From NCBI GenBank assembly GCA_025153445.1, contig JANZNS010000005.1:124001-188000 (forward strand): a DNA stretch of 64,000 bases. Reading direction: 5' to 3'. Origin of the DNA: Marinobacter sp. BGYM27 (GTDB lineage: Bacteria; Pseudomonadota; Gammaproteobacteria; Pseudomonadales; Oleiphilaceae). Positions within the stretch are counted from its first letter, which is position 1. Every line of letters starts with the position of its first letter. Under the pieces are notes generated by a model. The model did no database searches. It saw only the letters and a program-made list of their open reading frames with translations, and was not told where the DNA came from. Both the position numbers and the translations under genes were made by a program. Positions 38,126 to 56,254 of this stretch are shown here, piece by piece.

Positions 38126-39583
38126 ATGGGCAGCCAGCAAACGGAACGCAGACCAAGGGAAGCTGCTGTGGTAACCAAGCAGACGACATCGATTCGACTA
38201 CATCACTCTAACCTGCTCGCCTTTTTCCGGGCGTTTGACAGCTTCCTCGTGATATTCCTGCTTTCCATCGCGCTTATGGCGTTCGGTGTCGAGTGGAACA
38301 ATATCTACACCGGCCTTGGCGTACTCGCCATTATTACCTTTGGTTTCTTCGCAGAGACCAATGAGGTTTATCACATGTGGCGAGGTCATTCGACGACCTC
38401 CCTCGCCTCACGATTGCTGGGCGCATGGGTTGCCACTGCAATGGTTCTGGGTATGGCGGCACTGTTGATTGATCCATTCAAGGATCTCAACAGCACGGCC
38501 ATCATCTCCTGGATTGCCGGCACGCCGCTCGTGATCGTATCGTTCCACTGGTTCCGCCGAGTCGTTCTGACCAAAGTTCGGGGGCAATCTTCCAAGCCCC
38601 GTCGTGTTGGCATCGTCGGTGCCACGCCTCTGGGCAAGCGGCTGGTGGCATCGATCAACAAAATGCCCTGGACCGGTTACCGAATCCACGGTTACTACGA
38701 TGACCGTGCCTGTGTCGATGATAATCAACGACGCCTGAAAGACGAGGACGTGACGATCTGCGGCGGCTTGGAACAACTCCGGGCTGACGTCAAAGCCGGC
38801 AAGATCGATATTGTGTTTATTACGCTTCCAATGGCTGCTGAAAAGCGTGTGCGCACCCTTATTGATGCTCTGGCAAACAGCACTATTTCAGCCTATCTCA
38901 TTCCGGATGTGTTCAGCTTCGATCTGCTCCATTCACGTTTGACAGGCTTTCAGGGCATTCCAGCGGTCAGCATCTACGACTCACCGCTGGTAGAGCACGG
39001 TTCAACGAAACGGGCCGCAGACATCATCCTGAGCACGATTATCCTCGCCCTGCTCGCCATTCCGATGATCGCGGTGGCAATTGGCGTTAAGCTCAGTTCG
39101 CCCGGGCCCGTATTCTTCAAACAGTTCCGATATGGTGTGCGAGGTGAACCGATAAAGGTCTGGAAGTTCCGGTCGATGTCAGTGTGTGAAGACGGCCCTG
39201 ACGTTCCACAGGCCAAGCGCGATGATCCTCGTGTCACGCCTTTCGGTTCGTTTATTCGCCGGACATCGCTGGATGAGCTGCCACAACTGTTCAACGTGCT
39301 TGGCGGCAGCATGTCGCTCATCGGTCCTCGACCTCACGCGGTCGCCCACAACGAGTTTTATCGTGAGCACATTCAGGGTTATATGCTGCGCCACAAGGTC
39401 AAGCCTGGCATCACCGGTCTCGCTCAGATCAACGGTTTCCGGGGTGAGACTGAAACCCTGGACAAAATGGCGGGGCGCATCGCGTACGATCTGGAGTACA
39501 TCCGTAACTGGTCCCTCTGGTTGGATATCAAGATTCTCTGGTGGACTTTCTTCAGGGGTTTTGTAGGCCAGCAGGCTTACTAA
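38126..39583 (+). CDS. Undecaprenyl-phosphate glucose-1-phosphate transferase (EPS priming enzyme)
   Basis: A 485-residue membrane enzyme that starts polysaccharide assembly by moving a sugar-1-phosphate to undecaprenyl phosphate. The N-terminal half has four to five membrane helices (FLVIFLLSIALMAFGVEW, GLGVLAIITFGFF and others), a CoA-binding-like fold in the middle (RRVGIVGATPLGKRLVASIN), then the C-terminal bacterial sugar transferase domain from about residue 290 (KRAADIILSTIILALLAIPM; DDPRVTPFGSFIRRTSLDEL; MSLIGPRP; KPGITGLAQINGFRG). A strong aggaggg box precedes the ATG. Sugar specificity (glucose versus galactose) is inferred only from resemblance. Confidence 0.93.
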   Translation: MGSQQTERRPREAAVVTKQTTSIRLHHSNLLAFFRAFDSFLVIFLLSIALMAFGVEWNNIYTGLGVLAIITFGFFAETNEVYHMWRGHSTTSLASRLLGAWVATAMVLGMAALLIDPFKDLNSTAIISWIAGTPLVIVSFHWFRRVVLTKVRGQSSKPRRVGIVGATPLGKRLVASINKMPWTGYRIHGYYDDRACVDDNQRRLKDEDVTICGGLEQLRADVKAGKIDIVFITLPMAAEKRVRTLIDALANSTISAYLIPDVFSFDLLHSRLTGFQGIPAVSIYDSPLVEHGSTKRAADIILSTIILALLAIPMIAVAIGVKLSSPGPVFFKQFRYGVRGEPIKVWKFRSMSVCEDGPDVPQAKRDDPRVTPFGSFIRRTSLDELPQLFNVLGGSMSLIGPRPHAVAHNEFYREHIQGYMLRHKVKPGITGLAQINGFRGETETLDKMAGRIAYDLEYIRNWSLWLDIKILWWTFFRGFVGQQAY

Positions 39584-39653: not shown

Positions 39654-39693
39654 AAAAAAGGGGCCGGACATTTGATTGTCCGTCCCCTTTTTT
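39654..39693. terminator. Bidirectional terminator between priming enzyme and GT2 gene
   Basis: ggggccggaca (39660-39670) / tgtccgtcccc (39677-39687), one bulged pair, preceded by six A and followed by six T. It can end transcription from both the rightward transferase gene and the leftward GT2 gene. Confidence 0.92.
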
Positions 39694-39781: not shown

Positions 39782-40768
39782 TTATTTCGAAAAAGATGCT
39801 TTCTGGAACACACGCATAATCCGGCGATAGAGTTTACCTGCGCCGGTAAGCAGGAACGGCGCATTGGCCGCTACGATACGCATCATCCTGGCGTACAAAT
39901 AGCCGGACTCCTGCTCTGAACGAAGATAGAACAACTTCGCGTTGTCCAAATCCCCATCTGCTGCAAACCGGCTACCAATAGTGCAAAGGGATTTCGACAA
40001 CTCACGGCTGGGCGGTTTGAAAAGGCCGCCCTGGGTGCCGTATTTATCGAGCGGATCAGGACGCCCTGCGAGGCGTTCACGATGACAAAAAACGGCGAAG
40101 TCAGAAAGGTAGCGCTGTAACAGCAAACGCCGAGGATCCGCCGACACCGAGCCCGGAACCTTGGCAAATTTACGGTACAACACATCATTCAGCACAACGA
40201 ACTGGGTGTGGTGGCTTAGACGGCACCAGAGGTCCCGATCCTGAGCACACACGAAGTACGAGCGATACCTGCCGACTTTGTAGAAGAGATCCCGTCTGAA
40301 CATCACCTCCCCGTGATGAAACGGGTTTGTGGTCAGGATTTCAGTCTCGGCATCACCATCGAAAGTGAATGGCGTAATATGCGGCGCACGAGTGCTCTGT
40401 AGCGTCACAATTTCGGAGCGACATCCAACAACCCCTACCTCTGGACGAGCATCCAGAACCGCGCTCTGGCGTGACAAGCGCTCGCGAAACGCGATATCAC
40501 CACTGCCATGAACAGCAATATACCGGCCTTTGGCCTCATCGATTGCGGCGTTAATCGCGTTCACAAACCCCATGTTTTCGCCACCGATCACCCGCACTCG
40601 AGGGTCATCGGCATAACGGTTCAGCTGTGCGAGGGTGTCGTCTTTGGAACCGTCATCAACAAGTAGCACTTCGTAGTCTGTCATGTCCTGATCGAGCAAG
40701 CTTTTGACAGTATCGTCTACCAACGTCGAGCGGTTATAAAAAACTGAGACGACTGATACGGTGGTCAT
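39782..40768 (-). CDS. Glycosyltransferase family 2
   Basis: A 328-residue GT-A-fold transferase. VSVVSVFYNRSTLVDDTVKS at the N-terminus, the nucleotide-binding VDDGSKDD (Asp pair about residue 36), and the IAVHGSGDIAF stretch in place of the DXD region. Adds a sugar to the growing EPS repeat unit at the cytoplasmic membrane face. It is the last gene of the murA-murB-wzx transcription unit or a separate one; the 144-base gap to wzx leaves this open. Acceptor and sugar unknown. Confidence 0.9.
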   Translation of the reverse strand: MTTVSVVSVFYNRSTLVDDTVKSLLDQDMTDYEVLLVDDGSKDDTLAQLNRYADDPRVRVIGGENMGFVNAINAAIDEAKGRYIAVHGSGDIAFRERLSRQSAVLDARPEVGVVGCRSEIVTLQSTRAPHITPFTFDGDAETEILTTNPFHHGEVMFRRDLFYKVGRYRSYFVCAQDRDLWCRLSHHTQFVVLNDVLYRKFAKVPGSVSADPRRLLLQRYLSDFAVFCHRERLAGRPDPLDKYGTQGGLFKPPSRELSKSLCTIGSRFAADGDLDNAKLFYLRSEQESGYLYARMMRIVAANAPFLLTGAGKLYRRIMRVFQKASFSK

Positions 40769-40912
40769 CTAGGACATACCCCTTTGCGTTAATTAAACCA
40801 TCCAGTGGTCAGGACGTCGTGAATCGTCTGGCGCTGAAACGAACCGGTAGAGAACAGGAAAGGTTGAGACAGCGCAGTCGCCGATCGACATCAGCTAATG
40901 CATAACAGTCGA

Positions 40913-42244
40913 TCAGGCCTTTGCCTGATCGACTTTTTCCATTCCAAGAATCTTGCGCCCCTGAGCCCAGGCATCCGTAAGATCCGTTTTACGCAACAAC
41001 AAAAACTCACCCGGGGGTCGTTTGATCCTGCGCGAATAGATCATAATCATGATCAGCGCTGACAGGGTGTAACTTGCTGTTGACGCCAAAGCGGCCCCGA
41101 CACCCCCCATGTCCGGAATAAGGAGGTAGTTAAGACCGATATTTACCGGTACTGCGATGCTCATGATCGCCAGCGCAATGTAAGGTTTGCCCTTACCACC
41201 CAGATCGGTGTTAGCCAACTTGAACACCACCATCATCACCATACCCGGCAACAACCAGAGCAGCATGGTATCGGCGCCCTTGAAATCGGCACCGAACAAC
41301 AGCGGCACCATAAACGGTGCAACAGCACCAAACGCAACTGCACCCGCAATTGTGACCCAGAGTGATAACCGGATCGCACGGCACGCTGTTGCTTCCCAGT
41401 CCGTTGAGCCAGTTGGTGAATTGGCGCTGCGGGCAAAAATCATCATTCCGACAGCTGCCGGCAATTCCCAAAGCATCTCGCCGATCCTGGCTGCAATAGC
41501 GTATTTACCGGTCTCGGCATCCGTCGACAGCATCCCCATCAGGACAATATCGAGCTTGTAGTTTGCCATGATCAGAAACATCGCCAGCGCATAGACTGCG
41601 CCGATCTTCAGCATTCTGAAGACCATCATAAAACTGAAGTTGGGCCGGGTATTGACGGACTTGAGCAGAAACCAAAGTGCCTGCAAGGCATTGAAACCCG
41701 CCGAAGTCGCAGAAACGATGGCAGCCGTGAATACAGTAAGATGCCCCGTAAGCCAAAGCAGGCAGAGCATGGCAACGTACAGGGCTTTCTCAAACCAGAG
41801 CGCTGCATTGAACCGCTTGATTTGCTGCTTGCCAAGCAGAAAACCCCGCACCGCGCTGACCGTAATACCAGCAGGCAGAATAGCCGCCACGACAAAATAG
41901 ATGGCGCCATTTTCTATTGACGATCCCTGGAAATGGAGAATGGCATAAGCCACGCAAAAACCCACAACACCAGCCATGACGGCATAGAGCAATACCGCTC
42001 CCAACACATCCTCGTCAGATGCCAGCTTCTTGCCCAGGTAATAAGTTGCGGACTGACGCATGCCACCGTCAAAGAAATTCATCATCAACAGGGGAACGAC
42101 CAGTAACGTGGCGAGAATACCCTGACCTTCAGCCCCCAGAGACCGGGAGAGGACAACGATACCCGCGAGCGACAGCACTAATACAACTATTTTTGTGCCG
42201 AACACGGCAACGACATCGTGAAAAAATGAGCGTGCTTTGGCCAT
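40913..42244 (-). CDS. Wzx-type polysaccharide flippase
   Basis: A 443-residue protein with about 12-14 membrane helices, MATE/MOP-like, including the N-terminal RSFFHDVVAVFGTKIVVLVL and paired helices throughout. It moves lipid-linked repeat units across the inner membrane. It starts inside the stop of the murB-like gene (TGATG), so the two are translationally coupled. Placement with EPS transferases supports EPS rather than O-antigen use. Confidence 0.9.
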   Translation of the reverse strand: MAKARSFFHDVVAVFGTKIVVLVLSLAGIVVLSRSLGAEGQGILATLLVVPLLMMNFFDGGMRQSATYYLGKKLASDEDVLGAVLLYAVMAGVVGFCVAYAILHFQGSSIENGAIYFVVAAILPAGITVSAVRGFLLGKQQIKRFNAALWFEKALYVAMLCLLWLTGHLTVFTAAIVSATSAGFNALQALWFLLKSVNTRPNFSFMMVFRMLKIGAVYALAMFLIMANYKLDIVLMGMLSTDAETGKYAIAARIGEMLWELPAAVGMMIFARSANSPTGSTDWEATACRAIRLSLWVTIAGAVAFGAVAPFMVPLLFGADFKGADTMLLWLLPGMVMMVVFKLANTDLGGKGKPYIALAIMSIAVPVNIGLNYLLIPDMGGVGAALASTASYTLSALIMIMIYSRRIKRPPGEFLLLRKTDLTDAWAQGRKILGMEKVDQAKA

Positions 42245-43320
42245 CAGTCGTTCTCACCCACCAAGCGGGGTTTCACGCTGTCATTCACCGGGCTCGCATC
42301 CTTGAAATAATCCCCAAATAACGCATGAGCCTGAATATGGGCGGGAACAATCGCGCCTGCCGGTGTCACAAAGCGAGCTTCGGCTGGCATGTCATAGCCT
42401 GTGGTATTGAGTACTGTTCGGCGCACCTTTTCAATGAGGTACAAAACATCATTGGCTGTGGCAGTGCCACGGTTATTGATGAAATTGGCATGCTGTGGCG
42501 AAATCTCAGCCCCACCTCGCTTCAGGCCTTTGAGCCCGCAGCGCTCGATAACCGCACCGGGGGGGCCGTAATCGGCATACATGGCGGGATTGCTGACAAA
42601 CACCGAACCGCAATTTGGTAGCTTGCGGGGAAATTTATTACGTCGTTCACGCAGAATCGCCAGCATGCGCCTGCGAATGCCACGGGGAGCGTCAGAACGC
42701 TGGAAGGTGAACCGTGCACTAACGATGATTTCCCGTCGCTCCTGAAATACAGACGTCCGATAGGCAAAGCCGCAGGCTTCCTTATCGTATACCCGTAACT
42801 CGCCCTCTTCGGTGACTGTCGTAACCTCAGTGACATTGTCACCAATGCCTCGACGCTGACTGCCACCGTTCATGCACAACAACCCCCCCAATGTACCGGG
42901 AATGCCGCAGGTGTGCTCGGCGCCTTCAAGGCCGGCATTTGCCAGCGAACGGGCAAAACCCGGGACCCAGGCGCCGCTCTCACTCCAGACCGAGTCACCA
43001 TCAATGGTCATTGCGCCCAGCGATGGGCCCAGATGCAGCCCCAATACCTTAAGGCCCTCATCGGCAAACAGCAGATTTGAGCTTGAGCCGAGCACTACAT
43101 AGGGAATCTGGTGAGTATGGATATAGGCCATCACTGCACGCACTTCGTCGACCGAACCTGGAGACACCACCAGATCGGCAGTGCCTCCTATTCGCCATCG
43201 ACTCAGTTCCGAGAGGTTCACATTCACGTGAACGCCCTCGGGTGACAGCTCGCGAAGCGCCGGCACAATACCCTCCGGCAGGACGCGGTCTCGCCGTGAA
43301 GTAGCAGATGTCATGGGCAT
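42244..43320 (-). CDS. MurB-like UDP-N-acetylenolpyruvylglucosamine reductase (type II)
   Basis: A 358-residue FAD-dependent reductase. FAD site VVLGSSSNLLFADEG and HTCGIPGTLGGLLCMNGG; YRTSVFQ carries the substrate-binding Arg; the catalytic Ser is in NCGSVFVSNP; the late catalytic Glu is in PAEARFV. The stretch GGAEISPQHANFINN is the type II form, whereas the housekeeping gammaproteobacterial MurB is type I. It reduces enolpyruvyl-UDP-GlcNAc to UDP-MurNAc. It starts immediately after the murA-like stop (TAAATG) and overlaps wzx. I read it as a polysaccharide-specific paralogue, not the cell-wall enzyme. Confidence 0.88.
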   Translation of the reverse strand: MPMTSATSRRDRVLPEGIVPALRELSPEGVHVNVNLSELSRWRIGGTADLVVSPGSVDEVRAVMAYIHTHQIPYVVLGSSSNLLFADEGLKVLGLHLGPSLGAMTIDGDSVWSESGAWVPGFARSLANAGLEGAEHTCGIPGTLGGLLCMNGGSQRRGIGDNVTEVTTVTEEGELRVYDKEACGFAYRTSVFQERREIIVSARFTFQRSDAPRGIRRRMLAILRERRNKFPRKLPNCGSVFVSNPAMYADYGPPGAVIERCGLKGLKRGGAEISPQHANFINNRGTATANDVLYLIEKVRRTVLNTTGYDMPAEARFVTPAGAIVPAHIQAHALFGDYFKDASPVNDSVKPRLVGEND

Positions 43321-44601
43321 TTACTCCGCAGCAAATACGGAAGCGTGAACGCCCAACGCCTGCAGTTTTCCGGGCAAATTATTGTAGCCGCGCATCGCCA
43401 TCTGGACGTCCTTGATCCGGCTTTGGCCTTCAGCACAAAATGCCGCCAGCACCAATGCCATGCTGCCGCGCAGGTCTGTCGAGGTGACATCTGCGCCGCG
43501 CAGCTTGGCAACACCACGCGTGGTAATCTTGCCGGGCTCAAACTCTATTGCCCCGTCACAGAACTTGTTCAGCTCGCGAGCGTAGGCAATGCGCTCCGGA
43601 TAACGATAATCAAAGGTGCGGGAAATTCCGTTTGCCTTCATGCCAAGCAGAACGTAGAACGACTGCATGTCAGAAATCACGCCCGGGTGCGTGCCGCAAG
43701 CCAGCTCAAACGGCTGGATACCCTGGTCGCGCATACAATCGCCAGAAACAAACACCGAGTTGGAATTGCGGTAAAGATCGATACCGGCATCTTCCAGATG
43801 CAGTAACGGCACTTCCATGTGCTTGAACGGTACACCGTCAACAAACACACTGCCGCCAGTCATTGCCGCGAAGATAATCCAGGTCAGCGCTTCAATCCGA
43901 TCAGGCATCACCTCAAACGACGCACCTCGCATTACACCACCGATCCCTCTCACTCGAATCAGGCTGTTGCCGAAGTTCTCGATCTGGGCGCCCATCTGCC
44001 CCAGCATATCGATGAGGTCTTCAACCTCAGGCGTGATATAGGCGTTGCGGATTTCAGTCACGCCTTCAGCGACGGATGCGCACATCAATGCGTTCTCGGT
44101 GCCGCCAACGGTGGAAATCGGAAAATCAATCGGGCCACCCTTGAATTGCCCTGTAATCTCGATGTAGTCGTCTTTTTCTTCAACGACGCACCCAAGATCG
44201 CGCCATACCATCAAGTGGAGGTCGTAACCCCTGGCGCCGATTTTACAACCGCCGGGATATGGAATCCGGGCCTTGCCATTGCGCACAATCTGGCCAGCTG
44301 TCAGCAGGTAGGTCGTGCGGATCGGAAGGTCATAACTCTCAATGTTGTCGTACGACAAAGTCTTTGTGCGCACTTCCACAAAGTCATTGGCATCATCAAC
44401 ATCGATCTCGGCGCCCAGATTCCGCATGAAGCGGATCTTCTCCACCACATCAACCAGCTGAGTCGGGAAATTTCTTATCCGGACGGGTTCATCCGCCAGC
44501 ATCGCCGCTGCAAGCAATCGCGTAGCTGCGTTTTTAGCGCCACTGACCTTAACCCGACCAGACGGCACCTGACAGCCTTCGACAATCATGTCGTATCTCA
44601 T
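43321..44601 (-). CDS. MurA-like UDP-GlcNAc enolpyruvyl transferase
   Basis: A 426-residue EPSP-synthase-fold enzyme adding enolpyruvate from PEP to UDP-GlcNAc. All key residues are present: Lys in VSGAKNAA, the catalytic Cys in PYPGGCKIGARG (the fosfomycin-sensitive Cys115 equivalent), Asp in ISDMQSFYV and Arg in TSTDLRGSM. The surrounding sequence is far from the standard gammaproteobacterial MurA. I chose the ATG at 44601; an ATG at 44607 and a TTG at 44625 are alternatives, with gagg upstream. It heads the murA-murB-wzx unit. Likely a specialised copy making an activated acidic sugar for the EPS. Confidence 0.88.
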   Translation of the reverse strand: MRYDMIVEGCQVPSGRVKVSGAKNAATRLLAAAMLADEPVRIRNFPTQLVDVVEKIRFMRNLGAEIDVDDANDFVEVRTKTLSYDNIESYDLPIRTTYLLTAGQIVRNGKARIPYPGGCKIGARGYDLHLMVWRDLGCVVEEKDDYIEITGQFKGGPIDFPISTVGGTENALMCASVAEGVTEIRNAYITPEVEDLIDMLGQMGAQIENFGNSLIRVRGIGGVMRGASFEVMPDRIEALTWIIFAAMTGGSVFVDGVPFKHMEVPLLHLEDAGIDLYRNSNSVFVSGDCMRDQGIQPFELACGTHPGVISDMQSFYVLLGMKANGISRTFDYRYPERIAYARELNKFCDGAIEFEPGKITTRGVAKLRGADVTSTDLRGSMALVLAAFCAEGQSRIKDVQMAMRGYNNLPGKLQALGVHASVFAAE

Positions 44602-45593
44602 ATGCATCCATTCCTCATGTCGCAACTACAGTTAATAACTGGTTTAAAACTTTTGAATCAAAACGCCCATCCGAACATGAATGCTCGAACGCGCGATCAC
44701 TTTAAATCTAGCCGGCACCGTCCAGGGTGGAATACCATAATGCGGTGGTCAGAGCTGGCTTCAGTGATTGCCACAACATATGAGAGCCACTAACGAACTT
44801 GATGGCCTCAGCTGTGATCGCTATATAAAAGGTGTGTGCATAATGTGTTCCACCAACAGGCATTACGACTGAAATTTTCGTAATCATCTGCGCTATGACA
44901 ACACCTTAATAAACCCCCAAAACGCCCGATAAATAGCCAAACGCCACAGCATAAAAGAAACTGGCAACCCCCTATCTCCTCAAAGAAGCCGGGGGAAACA
45001 GGCTGCACCTCTCTCAAACGCACTTTTTTGGATCATAACGGACCGAAATCGAGCCATCTAAACGATGCCAACCGGCTTCAAATCCAAGACGGCCCTCCTG
45101 AACCCGAAATCCAGGCGCCGTCATCTTTGTATCACTATGTAACCACATTCCGGGCGACACCCCTAGTCCGGCGCATTACGAAACAGACGTAATTGCGGCC
45201 AGATCCGTGGCATAGTTACTGCTTTGTCAGTTGAACCTCGGTGTATTTATGTAGAAGCTAGTCACACCAAAATCAGGATCGATTCAAAGGTCAAAGGAAT
45301 GAAGCCAATTCTCGACGGTTCCAACTGGCAATCAGCCTGTTTTCTGAATTCAGCCAGACTACCTGATATCGCAACAGCGAAAGCTCGTAGCACCACATCA
45401 CGACAGGTAAAAACCGACAGTCTTTTCCATTTGGATATCCATCCACTTTATCGTGGCGGCGGACATCGCGCGCGCTCCTCAGTGTACCGCTCGAATATGA
45501 CGCTTTTTTTCTCGCGTCATATTCGCTGTGACGTATCCGCCCGTCGCGATAAACTTTCGATTACCCATCATGCGTCTAAAGGGATTGCCGCTC
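44602..45593. other. Long divergent gap with a 12-bp palindrome
   Basis: About 990 bases between the murA-like gene and epsL, with no convincing gene on either strand (a 125-codon frame at 45224 has no family, no binding site and overlaps the epsL start). Promoters for both units must lie here. The only strong signal is the inverted repeat at 45492-45525. Confidence 0.5.
45492..45525. promoter_or_regulatory. Perfect 12-bp inverted repeat upstream of epsL
   Basis: cgaatatgacgc (45492-45503) and gcgtcatattcg (45514-45525) are exact inverse copies, separated by tttttttctc. It ends 68 bases before the epsL start. It could be an operator for a dimeric regulator or a leader hairpin; the T-rich loop argues slightly against a simple terminator, since no T-run follows. 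Confidence 0.7.
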
Positions 45594-46754
45594 ATGTCTA
45601 ACCTTCTCCTGCGTCACGCTGTGATTACACTGCCATTACTGGGAACAGCCATGACGGTGTGGGGCGCTGAAGATGCCAAACCCGATGCTCTCTCGGCAGA
45701 TGTTGGAGTACGCCACACCTGGGACAGCAACTACGACAGAGAAGCCGACGGTAACGATGAACGCATCACCGTGGCTTACGCTGGCGCAGAGGTAAACACT
45801 GACATCAGCCGACAGCATTTCAGTGGTCGCATTGGCGTTGCCCGCTACATTCATGACCGCCGTGACTATCTGGATGCCACCGGTTATAACGGCGGGCTGG
45901 CTTGGCGCGGGGAGCTGGGCGACACTTTTCGCACGCTTGTCTCCTGGTCACGCAAAGATCGCCCGGCCGATCGAATCGACTTTATCGGTAATGACATCAT
46001 CACCTATGACGACAAGCAGGCAACACTGGTTTACGTCATGAACACATCATGGGAGATCCCGCTGACTGTCAGGGAGGCCGAACAGACCCACGATAATGAC
46101 AGCCGCCGTACACTCGACTACACCGACAAAGAACTGTTTACCGGTGTTCGCTACCGATCCGGGCGCAACTCAACGGTGATGCTACGACTCGTCAACGGTG
46201 AACGGGAATACCCTAACCAGGCCACCCCTATCCCTGCGGGTCAGGATCTTAATTTCGATTACCAGCGCGCCGAAGTCGAAACCAACTGGGCGTTCTCCAA
46301 AAAGACTCGACTCACCGGCGTGGTTGGCTACTTCCAGCGCGACGGCGAGGTGAACGATGGCAATGGTCTCCAGGCCCTGCTTGAAGGCAACTGGCAAGCA
46401 TCATCTAAAACACTGTTGACCCTTGGCTATAATTACGACCAGCCACCACTGGGTGAAGACTCGGAAAACGCATCAGACACTCAGCGCGTCTACATTGGCG
46501 CGGAGTGGGACGCTACGCCAAAGCTATCTGTCAAAACCGGCGCGAAACAAGTCTGGCAGTCTTTCGATAACACCCTGCAAACATCTGCAAGAGACGAGAC
46601 GGTAAACGTCGTCACGCCATTGATCGTTGCCTACCAGTTCACTGATGTCGTGGGCGTGGATCTGGTGAGCGCCTGGCAAAAACGCCACTCACCTATCGCT
46701 TCACGCGATTACTCTGCAACCGAATTAACCTTGGGACTCAAAGCGGAATTCTGA
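45594..46754 (+). CDS. epsL: EpsL-type outer-membrane beta-barrel protein of EPS export
   Basis: A 386-residue exported protein with a signal peptide (MSNLLLRHAVITLPLLGTAM, cleavage after WGA) and a chain of amphipathic beta strands with aromatic ends, closing with LTLGLKAEF and terminal Phe, as in outer-membrane barrels. Sequence and context match the EpsL family of EPS operons. I chose the ATG at 45594 because aggga lies about 9 bases before it. Its 3' end overlaps the convergent GT25 gene by 46 bases. Role: late step of EPS secretion or anchoring. Confidence 0.8.
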   Translation: MSNLLLRHAVITLPLLGTAMTVWGAEDAKPDALSADVGVRHTWDSNYDREADGNDERITVAYAGAEVNTDISRQHFSGRIGVARYIHDRRDYLDATGYNGGLAWRGELGDTFRTLVSWSRKDRPADRIDFIGNDIITYDDKQATLVYVMNTSWEIPLTVREAEQTHDNDSRRTLDYTDKELFTGVRYRSGRNSTVMLRLVNGEREYPNQATPIPAGQDLNFDYQRAEVETNWAFSKKTRLTGVVGYFQRDGEVNDGNGLQALLEGNWQASSKTLLTLGYNYDQPPLGEDSENASDTQRVYIGAEWDATPKLSVKTGAKQVWQSFDNTLQTSARDETVNVVTPLIVAYQFTDVVGVDLVSAWQKRHSPIASRDYSATELTLGLKAEF

Positions 46755-47560
46755 GCCTCACGCCGGTTACTATGATAATCGGCGTCTTTCGCCAGAAATC
46801 CTATCCTGCGATAGCCGCGCACTGTCCGCCAAAAAATTTGTGCAAGCTCATGGTAAGAGCCCGATCTCAGCGTGCGGATATAAGACGTACCCCCACGTTG
46901 TCGCACTTCAATGTTGCTCCCCAGCCCCAGATACCCTTCCCGACGGAACTTGTCTTGTATGCAAGGGGCGGGAGAGCACTGCAGAATCCGGAGCTTCCTG
47001 GCAATCACCGATTCCTGAAACGAAAACAGCATTGCATCTGCAGGCTGGTGGACTGACACCGGCAATTCGATGAGCTGCCTGGCGGCACGCTGACTTAATA
47101 TGTAGGCACCTGCGCACCAGGCGGTTGACTTGACGGGATAAAAGACGCGCCCGCCAAGCTGAAGAACCGGTTGTCGCGCCAACAACATCCGATTGGTTGA
47201 CGGTTCAAGTCGAATGATATCAGTGCCTTCAGGTATCCAATCATTGTGTGTAACGTAACGTCCGACGTCGCCTGAAAGATAAATATCATCTTCGAAAACA
47301 ACGCCGAAAGGCTGGGTACCCGCCGCAATTTTCTCCCAAGCTCTGTAGTGGCTCAGGAAACAGCCCATCTGTCCTCTCAACCAACGCTTGTTTTGCCTGG
47401 GCCGCGACTGCTGAAAGTGTTGAAAATCGCTCTCTGAAATCTCTCTGCCATCAACCGCCGCAATTCTCTCGAATGGCAAACCGAGACCATCCAGTTGCAG
47501 GGAGACTTGCTCCAATCGCCGTACGTCGCGATCCAGATTAATGACATACAGCGTCATCAT
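46709..47560 (-). CDS. Glycosyltransferase family 25
   Basis: A 283-residue transferase. TLYVINLDRDVRRLEQVSLQ at the N-terminus, AVDGREISESD, GQMGCFLSHYRAWEKI and FGVVFEDDIYLSGDV (EDD metal-binding motif) are the GT25 signatures. The ATG at 47560 is chosen because aggtgg lies 7 bases upstream and the gene before it ends at 47563. Last gene of the nine-gene EPS operon. Adds a sugar to the repeat unit; sugar unknown. Its end overlaps epsL on the opposite strand. Confidence 0.9.
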   Translation of the reverse strand: MMTLYVINLDRDVRRLEQVSLQLDGLGLPFERIAAVDGREISESDFQHFQQSRPRQNKRWLRGQMGCFLSHYRAWEKIAAGTQPFGVVFEDDIYLSGDVGRYVTHNDWIPEGTDIIRLEPSTNRMLLARQPVLQLGGRVFYPVKSTAWCAGAYILSQRAARQLIELPVSVHQPADAMLFSFQESVIARKLRILQCSPAPCIQDKFRREGYLGLGSNIEVRQRGGTSYIRTLRSGSYHELAQIFWRTVRGYRRIGFLAKDADYHSNRREAQNSALSPKVNSVAE

Positions 47561-47562
47561 GA

Positions 47563-48363
47563 CTAGTCCACCTGACCCGGCTGCTGATAACGATAGGCGG
47601 CGCACTCTTTTCCCGCTTTCATACAACGCACAAGAAAACGGACGATGTCGACGGTATAGCGCTTCATTAAACGCCTTGGTTCCAGGCTCAATCGATATAG
47701 CCACTCAAGCTTGAGTCGTTGAACAATCGCGGGGGCTCTCGGCTTATCACCGGCCATAAAATCAAACAATGCCCCCACTCCGATCAACGTTGAGCAATTC
47801 AGGCGGGCCCGGTTCTGCAGGATCCAGTTTTCCTGCCGGGGGTTGCCCATCGCAACCAGCACCACGTCAGCTGCTGACTGGTTAACGTCAGCGATGACAG
47901 CATCAGTGTCTGCCATTTCACTGAACCCGTCACGATGCCCCGCAACGACAATGCCTTCTGCCTCAAGCGCACCAGCGGCCCGCTTGGCAATGCCTGGCCC
48001 TGCACCAAGCAGGAAGACTCTGAGTGACGGGGCACCACGTCTTAGCGGCTCTTTAAGCAGATAGGGTACGAAGTCGGTACCGTTCAGGTTTTCCGGAAAG
48101 CGGCGACGATGAATCAGCATGCCACCGATATCCATACCAATTCCGTCGTTAACCAAGATGACATCAGGATGACGAAGCGCGGGTTTCAGGCTCTCACACT
48201 GGACCACAAAGTTGGTATTCACAAAAAACAGCACCCGCTGCTGCCCTGCCTTGTGGTCCGCCAGCAAGCGATCGGCGAGTGACCCGGTGCGCATACACTG
48301 TACCGGGTAACCTGCCAGGGGTAGCACATCAGATGATGGCGAGAAATGTTGTTCGCTGCTCAT
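47563..48363 (-). CDS. WecG/TagA/CpsF-family glycosyltransferase
   Basis: A 266-residue GT26 enzyme. The family core is clear: VNDGIGMDIGGMLIHRRRFP, NLNGTDFVPYLLKEPLRRGA, VFLLGAGPGIAKRAAGAL and VALGNPRQE-like VAMGNPRQENWILQNR. It transfers a ManNAcA- or Glc-type residue to a lipid-linked acceptor early in repeat-unit assembly. It overlaps the previous gene by ATGA. Donor sugar cannot be read from sequence. Confidence 0.92.
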   Translation of the reverse strand: MSSEQHFSPSSDVLPLAGYPVQCMRTGSLADRLLADHKAGQQRVLFFVNTNFVVQCESLKPALRHPDVILVNDGIGMDIGGMLIHRRRFPENLNGTDFVPYLLKEPLRRGAPSLRVFLLGAGPGIAKRAAGALEAEGIVVAGHRDGFSEMADTDAVIADVNQSAADVVLVAMGNPRQENWILQNRARLNCSTLIGVGALFDFMAGDKPRAPAIVQRLKLEWLYRLSLEPRRLMKRYTVDIVRFLVRCMKAGKECAAYRYQQPGQVD

Positions 48364-49544: not shown

Positions 49545-49585
49545 GGTGACGTTTACTCCCTGTTGCGTTCCTTGTATGCCCGGCA

Positions 49586-50671: not shown

Positions 50672-51795
50672 GAGCTGCCTCCTAGCTGCTCGTATACATT
50701 TGAATAGCGTTCGGCAATACGGGTCCAGCTATACCTTTCAGCAAATGCCATCGCCTTGTCGCGGCGCTCAACGTGAGCGTCATTGCCCTGCGCATGCAAC
50801 GCCTGAATCTGACGCGCGAACGCCTTCGGCTCATTCGCCGACGCGATCACACCCAGTCCGGATTCATCTATCAGTTTGCGAAACGGCGGAATATCACTAA
50901 GCACAGGCGTAAGCCCTGCGCTCATCGCTTCGATGGCGGCCAAGCCAAACCCTTCATGACGGGACAGGCACAGAAAATAACTTGCTTCGCTTATCAGTAA
51001 TCTCAAACGCTCATCCGATGGCCCCGGCTCGAGCCTGACCTGATTATTCAGTTTGCGGGCAGACCGTTCTGCATCCAAGTCCGCTGCCGTGAAGTCATAT
51101 TCCCTTCCGGTAATGATCAGCCGCCATTCAGGATCTTCCGCAACCAACTGCGCCATAACATCAAGCGCTTCGATAAGCCCCTTGTTGCTCGACCAGCGTC
51201 CAAAATAAATCAGCGTGCGGTTCAATTGCGCGGATCCGCAGTTTGAGTACTTGGTCGTGTTAACGCCGTTCTCAATCACCTCAAGCCTTGCAGGACGGAT
51301 GATCTCCCCAAACTTCGCCCCGTCATTCTCGCTTGTCGCGATAATTTTTTCGTAAGCGGATGAAGACGCCCGGGTAATCGTCTTGAACCAGGTTTCCTTA
51401 AGCCGACTCGCAAATTCGGTGTGGAAAAAGCCACCATGTGTGGACAGCATCAGGGGCCGACGGTGGATAGGCTTGGTCAAAGCGAGAAAGTCGTAGAAAA
51501 AATCCACGCCATGAACATGAACCAGATCAGCCTGTTTGATCTCACCCAGCACCTGCGGACAAAGCGGATAACGGCTGGATCCCGAATATGGCAGCCGGAC
51601 TACCGGCACACCTTCAACCATTTCCTCCTGGGGTAACAGATCGCTGTCGTTTCGAAACAGACGGTTAAGCGTAATGACCCGCGCCTCCTGGCCCGTTTTT
51701 TGAAGCTGGCTGGCAGCAATATTGCGGACCACCTCTTCCATACCACCGATCGACGGATGGTACTGGCGGACCACGTGGGCAACGCGAATGGTCAT
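50668..51795 (-). CDS. Glycosyltransferase family 4
   Basis: A 375-residue GT-B enzyme. VAHVVRQYHPSIGGMEEVVR (acceptor-domain glycine-rich start), IYFGRWSSNKGLIEALDVMA, and the donor-domain EASYFLCLSRHEGFGLAAIE with the E-x7-E motif. Adds a sugar to the EPS repeat unit at the cytoplasmic face. It overlaps both neighbours by four bases (ATGA), the tightest kind of operon packing. Sugar unknown. Confidence 0.92.
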   Translation of the reverse strand: MTIRVAHVVRQYHPSIGGMEEVVRNIAASQLQKTGQEARVITLNRLFRNDSDLLPQEEMVEGVPVVRLPYSGSSRYPLCPQVLGEIKQADLVHVHGVDFFYDFLALTKPIHRRPLMLSTHGGFFHTEFASRLKETWFKTITRASSSAYEKIIATSENDGAKFGEIIRPARLEVIENGVNTTKYSNCGSAQLNRTLIYFGRWSSNKGLIEALDVMAQLVAEDPEWRLIITGREYDFTAADLDAERSARKLNNQVRLEPGPSDERLRLLISEASYFLCLSRHEGFGLAAIEAMSAGLTPVLSDIPPFRKLIDESGLGVIASANEPKAFARQIQALHAQGNDAHVERRDKAMAFAERYSWTRIAERYSNVYEQLGGSS

Positions 51796-53177
51796 ATACT
51801 CACCTCCTTCCCTGGCATTGGACCGCGTTCAGGCCGACCGCCTGCGGGCGCAATACTTGTTACATTTATACCTGCCGGTCTTACAGGCGACTTCCGCTTA
51901 TGCCTGGCTGAAATGGTCATCGGGTCTCGAAGCGCACTACCAAGCAGGAACCAGAGCACCCCGGCGCTTTTCAGCGCAAATAAAGACGTGCCACTGATGC
52001 AAAGAATCAATGCGATATAAATACCCACAAAACACCTGAACCGGTTCGCTTCGTCGTTCGGCATCTTTATCAGCCAGTATGCAAACCACAGGGCGACAGC
52101 GAGAACCAGACCAAACGTCGACAACACATAGGCATAGCCCTGGTCAGGAAACCAGGCATCCCGGTCATAACCCAGTAAGATCGCGGAATCGAATTCGAGT
52201 AGCGATGAGGCGCTACTCATCAGTCGGCCTACATAACTGTCTGAATAGCGGATATCGAGGAAGAGCCCCATGGCGACGAGGCCTCCCAGGATGACAAATG
52301 GCATCAGCGCAGGCAGGAACAACGCCCTGCCCCTGAAGGTGATTCGTGCAAAAACCAGTACGCCGACAGACACCAGTGCAAAGCGCGAGTCAGCCAACAC
52401 AATCAGAAAAGCCGCAGCACCAACAAAGAAGAACATCGCCTTGCGATTAGCCCAATCCTTGGACAATCCCCAGGCTGCCACGATGGTGGCGAAGTTGCCC
52501 AGGGAGACGGGCTCAAGAAATACGGACGATACACGGTGGTTGTCCAGCAACCAGGGCAATAGGGTTCGCCCCATATCTTCAGGCCGGATACCGTTCATCT
52601 GAAGTTTGCTTTCGCGAACATAATCCGTAATCGGCTGCAGGTTTCCGATACCCACGTAGTACGAAAAAATATTGAATACATCGGTATAGGTATCAAGCGC
52701 AAACAACTCAAACAAGCCGAATGACGCCACCACCAGAATCGCGACTCTAAGCGTTTTATCGGCCAGATCCGGATTACCGAGATTGCGCCCAAGCCAATAA
52801 AACCAGATCGGAATCAGCAGATCCCGGAACCCTTTGATATCCAGTTGCCCGCGGACCAGCGCAAGCAAGCAAAGCATCGCACCCGCGAGTGCAGCTACCA
52901 TAACGACCTTGGGGAGAAGACGGGGTAAAAGCAGTGGCAAACAGCCAAGCATGATGGCGAACTCTGTCACGCCAACCAGTGCTCTGGACACGCCAAAAAC
53001 GTGGGTATGAATCAGGCAAAGAAGAGCCTGATAGCAAACCGTCGCCACAACCAGCAGCATCGCGAGACGCTGCTGGTTCCATGTAATCTGAACAGATTGA
53101 AGCTGCATGGCATCCCTGGCCCGAAACGACGAAGCCTCAGCCATGGCTGAGTGCCCATCGACGATAGTTGTATCCAT
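51792..53177 (-). CDS. O-antigen ligase/Wzy-like polysaccharide polymerase
   Basis: A 461-residue protein with about 11 hydrophobic helices (LLVVATVCYQALLCLIHTHV onward) and a large periplasmic loop (about residues 155-210), the plan of Wzy polymerases and WaaL-type ligases. In this operon it is probably the repeat-unit polymerase. The start at 53177 (MDTTIVDGHSAMAE) is chosen; a GTG at 53186 abuts the epsG stop. Polymerase and ligase cannot be told apart from sequence. Confidence 0.82.
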   Translation of the reverse strand: MDTTIVDGHSAMAEASSFRARDAMQLQSVQITWNQQRLAMLLVVATVCYQALLCLIHTHVFGVSRALVGVTEFAIMLGCLPLLLPRLLPKVVMVAALAGAMLCLLALVRGQLDIKGFRDLLIPIWFYWLGRNLGNPDLADKTLRVAILVVASFGLFELFALDTYTDVFNIFSYYVGIGNLQPITDYVRESKLQMNGIRPEDMGRTLLPWLLDNHRVSSVFLEPVSLGNFATIVAAWGLSKDWANRKAMFFFVGAAAFLIVLADSRFALVSVGVLVFARITFRGRALFLPALMPFVILGGLVAMGLFLDIRYSDSYVGRLMSSASSLLEFDSAILLGYDRDAWFPDQGYAYVLSTFGLVLAVALWFAYWLIKMPNDEANRFRCFVGIYIALILCISGTSLFALKSAGVLWFLLGSALRDPMTISARHKRKSPVRPAGINVTSIAPAGGRPERGPMPGKEVSI

Positions 53178-53186
53178 CGCTACCAC

Positions 53187-54062
53187 TTACTGGGATAGCG
53201 CAACACCCATCAAGCTGACACCGACCTCCTGAAGATGTCGGCTAGCCGCTTCGAGCGCCTTCAGTGGTGTCACATTTTCTTTCGCCACCATGAGTGCCGC
53301 TCCCGCCCTTGCTGCAATAAGCTGGGCATCGCGATTCTCTTTCAGTGGTGGCGTGTGAACGAGCACCACATCAAAGTTATTGGCAAGCGTTGTCATCAGC
53401 GTGCGATAACGACGGTGTGAGAGCAGTTCCTGCGGATTTGGTGCGACCGTGCCTCCATTGAGCAGCCACAGTGACTGCAAAGGCGCGCATAACTTGGGAG
53501 CCGGTGCCGCGCGGCCCGCCAGCACATCCGACAGCCCCTGCCCATCCGGCAGTGCGAACAGGCGATGCAGCGATGGTTGGCGCAAGTTGCCGTCAATCAG
53601 CAGCGTATTGGCACCCAACTGCGAAAAGACGATGGCCAGATTCGCTACGAGTTCGCCTGACGCCGCTTCACGGTCAACGCCAACAATCGGCAAAACCCGC
53701 TGGGCCGGATCATCGAAGTAACGCAGCATCAACTCGCTACGCAACCCGCGCAGCGCTTCCATGCGGCGGCTTTGAGGATAAAAAGCAGCAGTCAACGAAG
53801 GTGACAGCTGGCTGTTCGACAAGGGTGCAACCGAATAGGAAAACTGCTGGGCCAAGGCCGCCTTTACATCTTCCTGTGTGACCAGGCCGAGGCTGATAGC
53901 CGCTTCCCCGAAGCGCAAACCACGCGACTTCTGGAAACGGATGACACGCTCGAGATCGTGTGGCTTGATCTTGCCACTTTCGACCAATACGCGCCCCATC
54001 TGACCTACTTTGGTCAGAATTTCAGAAACCTCAATATCCAACTTCGGCGCCAGTTCTGTCAT
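53187..54062 (-). CDS. epsG: EpsG-type chain-length protein with inactive tyrosine-kinase domain
   Basis: A 291-residue protein. Residues 15-75 are a MshEN-like helical pair (MGRVLVESGKIKPHDLERVI; FGEAAISLGLVTQEDVKAAL), typical of EpsG. The rest is a BY-kinase fold, but Walker A reads VGVDREAASGELVAN (128-142) with no GK(S/T), and Walker B reads FDVVLVHTPP (230-239) with His in place of Asp. Only Walker A' is kept (TLLIDGNLRQ, 153-162). There is no C-terminal tyrosine cluster. It follows epsF with ATGA overlap. It likely works with EpsF structurally rather than as a kinase. Confidence 0.85.
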   Translation of the reverse strand: MTELAPKLDIEVSEILTKVGQMGRVLVESGKIKPHDLERVIRFQKSRGLRFGEAAISLGLVTQEDVKAALAQQFSYSVAPLSNSQLSPSLTAAFYPQSRRMEALRGLRSELMLRYFDDPAQRVLPIVGVDREAASGELVANLAIVFSQLGANTLLIDGNLRQPSLHRLFALPDGQGLSDVLAGRAAPAPKLCAPLQSLWLLNGGTVAPNPQELLSHRRYRTLMTTLANNFDVVLVHTPPLKENRDAQLIAARAGAALMVAKENVTPLKALEAASRHLQEVGVSLMGVALSQ

Positions 54063-55426
54063 ACAGGACTCCTTTCCTTTCCGAACCAACGTCTCCGGTC
54101 ACTGGGCAAATAAGCCAGTACCGGAACTCCAAGATACTCTTCGACTTCCGCTCGGCTCCTGACCCTGCGATGAGTCAGCTCGAGCAATAGCGACAACCCG
54201 ATGCCCAGCATAATGCCCAATGCCGCTGCGATAACGAGATTAAGCCGCACGTCTGGCGCAGACGGCAAGGTCGGTGCCACTGCATCGTTGAGAACGGCCA
54301 CGTCTGTTTGTGAAAGCCGGCTTTCAAGCCTGCTGGCAGAGGCCCGTCCAGAGGCAGTGTTGTACGCCTCTTGCGCCGCATCCACCTCTTGTTTCAAGAG
54401 ATCAAGCTCATCGCGCTGAGCATTAAGTTTGAGCACTTTTTCCTTTTGCTCGGCAACCGCATCCCTGAGTTCAGACTCGCGCTTGGCAGATTGAGCGGCC
54501 GTTGACTGGAGACTGCTACCCACAACCCGGGTTTCCTGAGAAAGTTGAGACTTGAGCGATTGCACTTCCGCCTCGGCTTTCTTGTATTCAGGGTGATTCC
54601 GCCCATAACGGGTTGACGCATCGCTCAGCGTGGCTTCGGCCTGCGCAAGATCTGATCGCAGCTTCTGCACGACCGGATTACCCAGAACCTGAGCACTCGC
54701 CTGCTTGTCCTGTACCTGACGTACATCATCCTGCAACCGGTCACCCTGAGCCGCTACCAACATTGAGGACAACTCGCGAAGCTTTGACGTTTCAACATCA
54801 AGTTTCTGGTCAGCCGCGACAATCCCGTGACTCTGCTGATAATCAGTCAACCGTGTACGCGCTTCTCGCAGGTTATCCCGCAACACGGTCATCTGTTCGT
54901 CATACCATTGGGAGAACCGGCGTGCGGGATCTGTGCGCAGCTCAAGATTCGTGCGCACGTAGGCTTCGGAAACTGCGTTCGCCAGGCCCGCTGCCAGTTC
55001 GGAGTTTTCCTCGCTGACGCTGACGCTCAGCACGTTGCTGTTGCGTCCGGGCGTGGCGACCATATTGCGCCGAAGGGTCTGGACGACCCACTTTTCCGGA
55101 TCGACCTCACCATCACTGGCGTCGTCCGCTGCGCGCTGATCTGCCAGCTTGCGCATGTCCGGCGGCAGAAGCTCATACACTTTCGAAGCAACCTTACGGC
55201 TCTGGATCACGTCAACCTGGGTCGCGATGTAGCCTGCGCGCGCAGGCAGCACCTGCCCACTGAGCAGATCCTGAGGCTTGCCATCCACTATAAGCTCGGT
55301 TGTTGCGGTGTAGGTCTTCGGTAAGCTCATTGAAACCACCAGGGTTGCAACAAGACAAAATACCGTAAGACCCGCAATCAACAGCCATCGCGCTCTAAGT
55401 ATCTTAAAGAAACTTTCCAGGCTCAC
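54059..55426 (-). CDS. epsF: EpsF-type polysaccharide chain-length determinant (Wzz/GNVR)
   Basis: A 455-residue inner-membrane protein with a helix near each end (WLLIAGLTVFCLVATLVVSM at 14-33; LNLVIAAALGIMLGIGLSLL near 410) and a long periplasmic coiled coil between (residues about 175-380). The end, VRSRAEVEEYLGVPVLAYLP, is the usual cytoplasmic proline-rich tail. It sets chain length and links to the EpsG partner. It starts 15 bases after the epsE stop. Length fits the EpsF family. Confidence 0.92.
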   Translation of the reverse strand: MSLESFFKILRARWLLIAGLTVFCLVATLVVSMSLPKTYTATTELIVDGKPQDLLSGQVLPARAGYIATQVDVIQSRKVASKVYELLPPDMRKLADQRAADDASDGEVDPEKWVVQTLRRNMVATPGRNSNVLSVSVSEENSELAAGLANAVSEAYVRTNLELRTDPARRFSQWYDEQMTVLRDNLREARTRLTDYQQSHGIVAADQKLDVETSKLRELSSMLVAAQGDRLQDDVRQVQDKQASAQVLGNPVVQKLRSDLAQAEATLSDASTRYGRNHPEYKKAEAEVQSLKSQLSQETRVVGSSLQSTAAQSAKRESELRDAVAEQKEKVLKLNAQRDELDLLKQEVDAAQEAYNTASGRASASRLESRLSQTDVAVLNDAVAPTLPSAPDVRLNLVIAAALGIMLGIGLSLLLELTHRRVRSRAEVEEYLGVPVLAYLPSDRRRWFGKERSPV

Positions 55427-55441
55427 TGACGGGTCCCTCCG

Positions 55442-56254
55442 TTAAAACAGGCTTTCTTTGACGAACAACACATCGCCATCTTCGATACGATCTTCGAAGC
55501 GCGCTTCCAGCTCTTCGACTTCGCCATCAGGCTGCTGGCGATAGATAATCAAACCACTTGAACTGGCGCTGGGGTTAAAGCCACCGCTTACCGACAATGC
55601 CTGCATCACGTTAAGGGGACGATCCAGCGCATAGGTTCCCGGCTTTTGAACCTGTCCATACACATAGAACTGGTCCGCACGGGGTATGTACACTGTATCA
55701 CCTTTTCCTAGCGTAACCGGCGAACGGCCCTCAGCACTGCTGTCCAGCAGCTCACGGAGATTAAACTCCTTACGCGACTGGCGACCTTCATCGTCGATAT
55801 TAACGAGAATAATGCGTTCGCTACCGGTGTCGTTGATGCCTCCAGCCAGTGCCAGAGCCTCGGTCAGAGAGGTTGGCCCTTCCAGCGCGATACGCCCGGG
55901 ATGGTTGACCTGACCCAGAATCGATACGGTGTTGCTGCGGTATTGCTCAATAAGCAGATTGACGTGGGCCCGTTTCAGGTAGCCCCGTTGCTCCAGTTGC
56001 CGACCAATCAGATCGCCCGCGTCCTGAGGGGACATGCCCCGAATTTCGACACGACCAACCAGCGGCATGGTAATCGTACCATCGCCGGCGACTTCAGCTT
56101 CTGTGGTGAGATCTTCCTGGCCATACACCATGACCTTGACCCTGTCTCCGGTTCCCAGCTTGTAAGCTTCGGAAGCCGCAGCAAAAACCATGTTGGAAAA
56201 AAACACCAAGAATAGTGTCAGGCTTGATGCCAATAGACGCCCATTCATCTTCAT
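55442..56254 (-). CDS. epsE: EpsE-type polysaccharide export outer-membrane protein (Wza-like)
   Basis: A 270-residue exported protein. Signal peptide (MKMNGRLLASSLTLFLVFFS), a poly_export domain (YKLGTGDRVKVMVYGQEDLT), and SLBB domains (VSILGQVNHPGRIALEGPTS; FYVYGQVQKPGTYALDRPLN). The start at 56254 is chosen because aggga lies 9 bases upstream. It lacks a lipobox cysteine. It forms the periplasmic/outer-membrane exit for the polysaccharide and is the first gene of the nine-gene minus-strand operon. Confidence 0.93.
   Translation of the reverse strand: MKMNGRLLASSLTLFLVFFSNMVFAAASEAYKLGTGDRVKVMVYGQEDLTTEAEVAGDGTITMPLVGRVEIRGMSPQDAGDLIGRQLEQRGYLKRAHVNLLIEQYRSNTVSILGQVNHPGRIALEGPTSLTEALALAGGINDTGSERIILVNIDDEGRQSRKEFNLRELLDSSAEGRSPVTLGKGDTVYIPRADQFYVYGQVQKPGTYALDRPLNVMQALSVSGGFNPSASSSGLIIYRQQPDGEVEELEARFEDRIEDGDVLFVKESLF

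What the first reader, a model, noticed from the sequence alone, without database searches (positions are those of the whole stretch)
42244..44601. MurA and MurB paralogues embedded in an EPS operon
Catalytic residues of both are kept (MurA Cys in PGGCKIGARG; MurB Ser and Glu), but MurB is the type II form while gammaproteobacterial housekeeping MurB is type I, and the MurA is strongly diverged. They are coupled to wzx. This suggests the EPS contains muramic acid or an enolpyruvyl/lactyl-GlcNAc derivative, giving an acidic polymer. Coupling of wall-precursor chemistry to exopolysaccharide could also mean a fosfomycin-responsive EPS.
Basis: partly seen in the sequence, partly recalled or inferred. 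Interest (0 to 1): 0.78.

Follow-up and report, generated by a model that had tools for sequence, protein, structure and literature searches.

The report
Repurposed MurA–MurB pair making slime sugar
A bacterial gene cluster for an outer polysaccharide carries altered copies of the wall enzymes MurA and MurB, a pair that recurs in unrelated bacteria, mostly among polysaccharide genes and often beside the same type of sugar-attaching enzyme, and that would likely make a lactic-acid-bearing acidic sugar for the polysaccharide rather than the cell wall's muramic acid.

Summary
Window 42244-44601 holds a MurB-like and a MurA-like gene, contiguous, murB overlapping wzx by one base, inside a xanthan-like EPS locus. 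The genome has its own housekeeping murA (32% identical) and type I murB. The MurA paralogue belongs to a distinct clade (51 rows against 53 housekeeping rows, SH-aLRT 100) found in many phyla. A MurB lies in 50 of 53 loci, and a family-2 glycosyltransferase like window 39782-40768 lies within 4 kb in 26 of 50 genomes; 0 of 55 relatives without the paralogue have one that similar. The catalytic residues are kept, but the acceptor pocket is rebuilt: the Val327 position is Arg in 226 of 226 listed homologues, and Glu188 is Thr/Ser. The partner MurBs examined all lost Asn233. So a lactyl sugar in the EPS is well supported, but muramic acid is the less likely product. I predict a 3-O-lactyl uronic acid, most likely 3-O-lactyl-glucuronic acid ('nosturonic acid'), known chemically from Alteromonas, Vibrio alginolyticus and Nostoc EPS; I saw no gene for it in ten paper searches. 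The acceptor is inferred, not shown. Fosfomycin sensitivity is plausible but untested.

The parts
43321..44601 (-). MurA-like enolpyruvyltransferase paralogue (MurA2), 426 aa
   Evidence: PF00275 193.7 bits; 32% to own housekeeping MurA; member of a separate clade
42244..43320 (-). MurB-like reductase paralogue (MurB2), type II, 358 aa
   Evidence: PF02873 and PF01565; Arg188, Ser239, Glu314 kept; the E. coli Asn233 position is Ser243
40913..42244 (-). Wzx-type flippase, overlapping murB2 by one base
   Evidence: PF01943; sequence
39782..40768 (-). Family-2 glycosyltransferase, proposed partner that transfers the lactyl sugar
   Evidence: PF00535; 26 of 50 MurA2 genomes have a match of 100 bits or more within 4 kb of murA2; best in 55 relatives without MurA2 is 91.3 bits
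44245..44247 (-). codon of Cys119 (E. coli Cys115, fosfomycin target)
44032..44034 (-). codon of Thr190 (E. coli Glu188; Glu in 53 of 53 housekeeping rows)
43603..43605 (-). codon of Arg333 (E. coli Val327; Val/Ile/Met in 53 of 53 housekeeping rows)
38126..39583 (+). WcaJ/GumD-type undecaprenyl-phosphate glucose phosphotransferase
   Evidence: TIGR03023 514.8 bits, cut-off 410.75
45528..46754 (+). EpsL-like outer-membrane protein
   Evidence: TIGR03014 154.3 bits, below its cut-off 275
46709..47704 (-). family-25 glycosyltransferase
   Evidence: PF01755
47563..48363 (-). WecG/TagA/GumM-type glycosyltransferase
   Evidence: PF03808 172.2 bits
48360..49757 (-). GumK-type glucuronosyltransferase (true start uncertain)
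   Evidence: PF22059 GumK_N 224.4 bits
49586..50671 (-). GH5 cellulase-like protein
   Evidence: PF00150
50668..51795 (-). GT4 glycosyltransferase
   Evidence: matches to GT4 models below their cut-offs
51792..53186 (-). probable Wzy polymerase, assigned by place and membrane-like sequence only
   Evidence: no NCBIfam match; inference
53187..56311 (-). probable tyrosine kinase (53187-54089), Wzc-like (54059-55426) and Wza-like (55442-56311) genes, not scanned against a library
   Evidence: read from the translations; order conserved in two congeners

Best explanation
The two genes are a MurA paralogue and a MurB paralogue that sit in an EPS locus and would likely make a lactyl-bearing sugar donor for that EPS, predicted to be UDP-3-O-lactyl-glucuronic acid rather than UDP-MurNAc. 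Steps: (1) MurA2 would transfer enolpyruvate from PEP to the 3-OH of a nucleotide sugar (chemistry inferred from kept catalytic residues). (2) MurB2 would reduce the enol ether to the (R)-lactyl ether with FAD and NADPH (inferred likewise). (3) The acceptor is likely an anionic, uronic-acid nucleotide sugar, because Glu188 of the pocket is lost and an Arg is gained at Val327 in all family members examined (substitutions shown; their meaning inferred). (4) The GT2 at 39782-40768 is predicted to add this residue to a xanthan-like lipid-linked repeat, which Wzx and Wzy would flip and polymerise. The genes behave as a portable cassette (shown by loci in many phyla and two plasmid trios).
For: Separate clade: 51 MurA2 rows on one side of a branch from 53 housekeeping rows, SH-aLRT 100. 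53 loci in named genomes of Pseudomonadota, Bacteroidota, Cyanobacteriota, Actinomycetota, Verrucomicrobiota and others. 50 of 50 such genomes searched have at least three PF00275 matches. MurB in 50 of 53 loci, 43 of 53 within 125 bp of murA2. At least two further polysaccharide genes, by similarity to a limited query set, in 39 of 53 loci. Catalytic residues (E. coli K22, N23, R91, C115, R120, D305, R331, D369, R371, R397) kept in 51 of 51. Pocket: Val327 position Arg in 51 of 51 rows and 226 of 226 listed homologues (the window's own included); Glu188 Thr/Ser in the same, Arg in three more distant relatives that also carry Arg at 327; housekeeping 53 of 53 Glu and 53 of 53 Val/Ile/Met. MurB2 Asn233: Ser 35 of 35, Arg 17 of 17, Ser 2 of 2 in three groups; Asn in 25 of 25 housekeeping MurB. 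GT2: 29 of 50 MurA2 genomes have a match of 100 bits or more, 26 of the 29 within 4 kb of murA2, against 0 of 55 MurA2-less relatives. A murA-murB-GT2 trio stands among metabolic genes on a Qingshengfaniella plasmid and recurs on a Rhizobium plasmid. The own genome has a UDP-glucose dehydrogenase-like gene and the locus a GumK-type glucuronosyltransferase. 3-O-lactyl-GlcA is a known EPS sugar.
Against: No enzyme or sugar was assayed. The acceptor rests on residue changes, and that Glu188 and Val327 face the sugar is known to me only from docking papers and recall. A dehydrogenase-like gene is seen in only 15 of 53 loci, and at 30% identity or more to the query in only 7 of these, so in-locus supply of UDP-GlcA is no rule. 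MurA2 is rare in groups where nosturonic acid was described: 1 of 386 cyanobacterial genomes, 2 of 196 Vibrio, 4 of 59 Alteromonas; no producer strain was tested. 21 of 50 MurA2 genomes lack a GT2 match of 100 bits, and 3 of the 29 that have one have it outside the murA2 locus. MurB2 is not one clade. 8 of 53 loci, five of them short contigs under 7 kb or ending nearby, showed no polysaccharide marker. One scan pattern contains Thr/Ser at position 190, so that column is biased in the 53 loci. The own genome also has a TviB-type UDP-GlcNAc dehydrogenase, so other uronic acceptors exist.
Confidence: 0.5

Rival explanations
1. The pair makes ordinary UDP-MurNAc as a private supply, and the EPS contains muramic acid.
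For: Family assignment, intact catalysis, same gene pair. Duplicated sugar-supply genes in polysaccharide loci are common (recalled).
Against: Uniform change of pocket residues in both enzymes; the cell already has the enzymes for UDP-MurNAc.
Confidence: 0.2
2. The same lactylation, but on another acidic acceptor such as UDP-GlcNAcA, UDP-GalNAcA or UDP-GalA.
For: Pocket gains positive charge; the own genome has a TviB-type UDP-GlcNAc 6-dehydrogenase over its cut-off (634.4 of 592); an epimerase lies next to the dehydrogenase in several loci.
Against: The lactylated uronic acid in the papers read is GlcA, at O-3; the window locus carries a GumK-type GlcA transferase.
Confidence: 0.2
3. A spare or stress copy of wall synthesis, for instance to buffer fosfomycin.
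For: MurA and MurB homology.
Against: The fosfomycin Cys is kept in 225 of 226 listed homologues, so resistance is not expected; remodelled pockets; frequent polysaccharide and GT2 context.
Confidence: 0.05
4. The product stops at, or is used as, an enolpyruvyl ether, with MurB2 doing something else.
For: No MurB was found in L052 and L080.
Against: MurB2 keeps the Arg159, Ser229 and Glu325 equivalents in 54, 54 and 53 of 54 (one gap).
Confidence: 0.04

Closest known systems
MurA (UDP-GlcNAc 1-carboxyvinyltransferase) and MurB of peptidoglycan synthesis
   Same: Protein families, catalytic residues, paired chemistry (enolpyruvyl transfer, then reduction)
   Different: Separate clade, changed acceptor pocket, polysaccharide context, below the MurA equivalog cut-off
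NikO (nikkomycin enolpyruvyltransferase)
   Same: A MurA relative recruited to another acceptor (3'-OH of UMP), fosfomycin-sensitive; passages of PMC6801904 seen
   Different: NikO is more distant from MurA2 (phmmer 101 bits against 233.5 for the best solved MurA) and acts in antibiotic synthesis
Nosturonic acid, 3-O-lactyl-GlcA, in EPS of Nostoc commune, Alteromonas HYD657 and 1644, Vibrio alginolyticus CNCM I-5034
   Same: A 3-O-lactyl sugar in an acidic EPS, the predicted product
   Different: No gene assigned in the parts of the papers I saw; producer genomes not tested
Xanthan gum cluster with GumL ketal-pyruvylation
   Same: GumD-, GumK- and GumM-type enzymes in the locus
   Different: Here PEP would be used for a lactyl ether through MurA2/MurB2; none of the ten locus proteins scanned with Pfam matched a pyruvyltransferase family

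Membership tests
MurA equivalog (EC 2.5.1.7) | EPSP_synthase family | tested here: met
   PF00275 193.7 bits, cut-off 22.8
MurA equivalog (EC 2.5.1.7) | Passes the curated MurA equivalog cut-off | tested here: not met
   TIGR01072 336.5 of 392.7; the housekeeping copy scores 603. The broader subfamily model PRK09369 is passed (350.5 of 297)
MurA equivalog (EC 2.5.1.7) | Catalytic residues including Cys115 | tested here: met
   51 of 51
MurA equivalog (EC 2.5.1.7) | Conserved Glu188 and aliphatic/Met residue at 327 in the UDP-GlcNAc pocket | tested here: not met
   Thr190 and Arg333; 53 of 53 housekeeping rows conserve both
MurA equivalog (EC 2.5.1.7) | Uses UDP-GlcNAc | not testable with these tools
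   Needs an assay
MurB, type II | Arg159, Ser229, Glu325 kept; E. coli Tyr190 segment absent | tested here: met
   TIGR00179 184.4, cut-off 144.5
MurB, type II | Asn233 of the substrate channel | tested here: not met
   Ser243 in the window; Asn in 25 of 25 housekeeping MurB, 13 of them type II
Xanthan-type EPS cluster | GumD-, GumK- and GumM-type enzymes with Wzx/Wza/Wzc-type genes | tested here: met
   for WcaJ, GumK_N, WecG and Wzx; Wza, Wzc, kinase and Wzy only by reading and synteny
Xanthan-type EPS cluster | Structure of the polymer | not testable with these tools
   Needs sugar analysis

The most novel reading that the evidence does not exclude
A previously unrecognised family of MurA/MurB paralogues forms, with a dedicated GT2, a mobile cassette that puts 3-O-lactyl-uronic acid (nosturonic acid) into polysaccharides across many bacterial phyla: the wall's enolpyruvyl-reduction chemistry re-aimed at UDP-glucuronic acid, and the missing biosynthetic genes of lactylated EPS.
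Probability: 0.42. Interest if true: 0.82.

Novelty: new variant of a known kind. Interest (0 to 1): 0.7.

Why it matters
Lactyl ethers are found chemically in bacterial polysaccharides, and the papers I could see name no genes for them. If right, this gives a gene marker for lactylated EPS, a second use of the MurA/MurB reaction, a handle for engineering strongly acidic, metal-binding polysaccharides, and a possible off-wall target of fosfomycin: in six genomes (five Bacteroidota and one Sumerlaeota) the housekeeping MurA row carries Asp instead of Cys while the 51 MurA2 rows all keep Cys.

Tried and rejected
A scan of genome contigs with the single MurA2 found none; the alignment scan worked. 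My guess that the frequent ~598-aa neighbour is an asparagine synthase was wrong: it is an ABC transporter. The guess that cyanobacteria at large carry MurA2, which would have tied it to Nostoc, failed (1 of 386 at E 1e-110). Vibrio (2 of 196) and Alteromonas (4 of 59) show an accessory gene, not a genus trait. In the MurB tree three rows labelled housekeeping (from L132, L134, L148) were MurB2 copies; they were dropped. MurB2 is not one clade: three groups lie among type II MurB, so the partner may have been recruited more than once. The tree is a quick one with long branches; one housekeeping row (L168) is so divergent that its identity as MurA is uncertain, and the three distant relatives with Arg at 188 are not in it. 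A Sphingomonas plasmid copy (37% to a cyanobacterial MurA2) has housekeeping residues (Glu188, Ile327) and no MurB or EPS neighbours, so not every second murA is of this kind. My gene caller missed some murA2 genes under antisense frames; counts use tblastn. The GT2 control genomes are of one order, not matched to all phyla. No structure was predicted, since by its description the tool returns no coordinates to measure, and sequence matches to solved MurA and MurB were strong.
Full report
Observation. The window carries a murA-like gene (43321-44601, minus) and a murB-like gene (42244-43320, minus). They abut without a gap, and murB overlaps wzx by one base. Pfam and NCBIfam confirm both families. 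The same 4.03 Mb genome has a separate murA (near hisG and an mlaC-like gene) and a separate type I murB. The paralogues are 32% and 25% identical to them.

Surroundings. The locus holds a WcaJ/GumD-type starter enzyme, GumK- and WecG/GumM-type transferases, GT4, GT25, GT2, Wzx and a GH5; Wza-, Wzc-, kinase- and Wzy-like genes were read from the translations. Two congeners keep most of it (wzc, kinase, wzy, GT4, GH5, gumK, gumM, wcaJ) together with murA2, murB2 and GT2 (83%, 61-66%, 69%); the window's wzx found no match there. 3 of 6 genomes of the genus, the own one included, have murA2.

Family. The protein search listed the best 120 of 5,527 scored homologues, at 60-100% identity. An alignment scan gave 53 loci in named genomes. 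Of the 51 full-length rows used in trees, 21 were labelled Pseudomonadota, 18 Bacteroidota, 2 Actinomycetota, 2 Verrucomicrobiota, and 1 each Cyanobacteriota, Acidobacteriota, Sumerlaeota and Omnitrophota; the others had no phylum label. The 51 rows form one side of a branch against 53 housekeeping rows (SH-aLRT 100, quick tree with some long branches). All 50 genomes given to the family search hold at least three EPSP_synthase-family matches, as expected for aroA, murA and murA2, and 46 of 50 hold at least two MurB_C matches. The gene is accessory: 4 of 59 Alteromonas, 2 of 196 Vibrio, 1 of 386 cyanobacterial genomes.

Cassette. A MurB lies in 50 of 53 loci; in 43 of 53 it is within 125 bp of murA2, in six about 1.3 kb away, in one (L088) it is near a broken murA2, and three (L052, L074 at a contig end, L080) show none. 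By similarity to a limited set of polysaccharide queries, 39 of 53 loci hold at least two further polysaccharide genes, 45 at least one, 8 none. A GT2 like the window's scores 100 bits or more in 29 of 50 MurA2 genomes; in 26 of these it lies within 4 kb of murA2, in the other three (133, 157.7 and 105.6 bits) far away or on another contig. In 55 relatives without murA2 the best is 91.3 bits. That control is of one order only. On a Qingshengfaniella plasmid murA, murB and GT2 stand between metabolic and hypothetical genes; a Rhizobium plasmid has the trio next to a flippase and an export gene.

Residues. Ten catalytic residues are kept in 51 of 51. Two pocket positions change without exception in the MurA2 rows examined: Val327 to Arg and Glu188 to Thr/Ser (51 of 51; 226 of 226 listed homologues, which include the window's own). 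Three more distant relatives (Qingshengfaniella, Rhizobium, Agrobacterium; 37-42% to a cyanobacterial MurA2) have Arg at both. A Sphingomonas plasmid copy keeps the housekeeping residues. One scan pattern contains Thr/Ser at that place, so the 53-locus set is biased there; Arg333 is not in a pattern, and the 226 were picked by similarity, not pattern. Val327 is placed in the UDP-GlcNAc pocket in PMC9031695 (passages); Glu188 is among ligand contacts in docking tables of PMC11628175 and PMC8587927 (passages). In MurB2 the Arg159, Ser229 and Glu325 equivalents stay (54, 54 and 53 of 54), but Asn233 is Ser (35 of 35 and 2 of 2) or Arg (17 of 17) against Asn in 25 of 25 housekeeping MurB. The P. 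aeruginosa residue that I equate with it by numbering offset, Asn-243, lines the substrate channel (PMC3689657, passages).

Mechanism. Shown: gene order, co-occurrence, kept catalytic residues, changed pocket residues. Inferred: enolpyruvyl transfer, reduction to a lactyl ether, an anionic acceptor, transfer by the GT2. The best candidate is UDP-GlcA: GumK in the locus needs it (recalled); the genome has a UDP-glucose dehydrogenase-like protein (passes the nucleotide-sugar dehydrogenase model; best model TuaD, 508.7 bits, below that model's cut-off 700); and 3-O-lactyl-GlcA is a known EPS sugar: V. alginolyticus CNCM I-5034 (PMC5983295, two of four parts and the references read), Alteromonas HYD657 and 1644 (PMC2901825, passages), Nostoc commune (PMC6017307, passage). 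A dehydrogenase-like gene lies in 15 of 53 loci, but only 7 of the 15 reach 30% identity to the query. Against GlcA: rarity of MurA2 in the producing groups, no producer strain tested, and a TviB-type enzyme that offers another uronic donor.

Literature. The searches showed me, in titles, abstracts and the passages opened, no paper that assigns MurA/MurB paralogues to an exopolysaccharide sugar. Most subscription papers are not held and most listed papers were not opened, so this is no proof of absence. Other papers seen in passages only: PMC6801904, PMC5852497, PMC10816260.

Verdict. A real, recurrent polysaccharide cassette with repurposed wall enzymes, not reported within the searches named. 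Lactyl sugar in the EPS: about 0.85. Acceptor other than UDP-GlcNAc: about 0.7. UDP-GlcA in particular: about 0.5.

Noticed in passing
window 47563-51795: GumK-, GumM- and GT4-type genes with a GH5 cellulase: a xanthan-like EPS locus, conserved in two congeners (L198, L199).
   Followed up: partly
window 39665-39682 and 40907-40934: Terminator-like hairpins between the convergent wcaJ and GT2 genes and at the end of wzx.
   Followed up: no
L179, L181, L182: More distant MurA2 relatives on alphaproteobacterial plasmids with Arg at both the E. coli 188 and 327 positions.
   Followed up: partly
L183 9037-14997: Haematobacter plasmid with murA2-murB near an IS21 element and a dehydrogenase-epimerase pair, a possible route of spread.
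   Followed up: no
L088 9995-12196: Halomonas sulfidaeris record with murA2 in pieces next to murB; described only.
   Followed up: no
L159-L163, L170: Housekeeping MurA of five Bacteroidota and one Sumerlaeota genome has Asp in place of the fosfomycin Cys, while all 51 MurA2 rows keep Cys.
   Followed up: partly
window 30782-33509: A sigma-factor-like gene next to two small YCII-like genes (named from recall of such translations).
   Followed up: no
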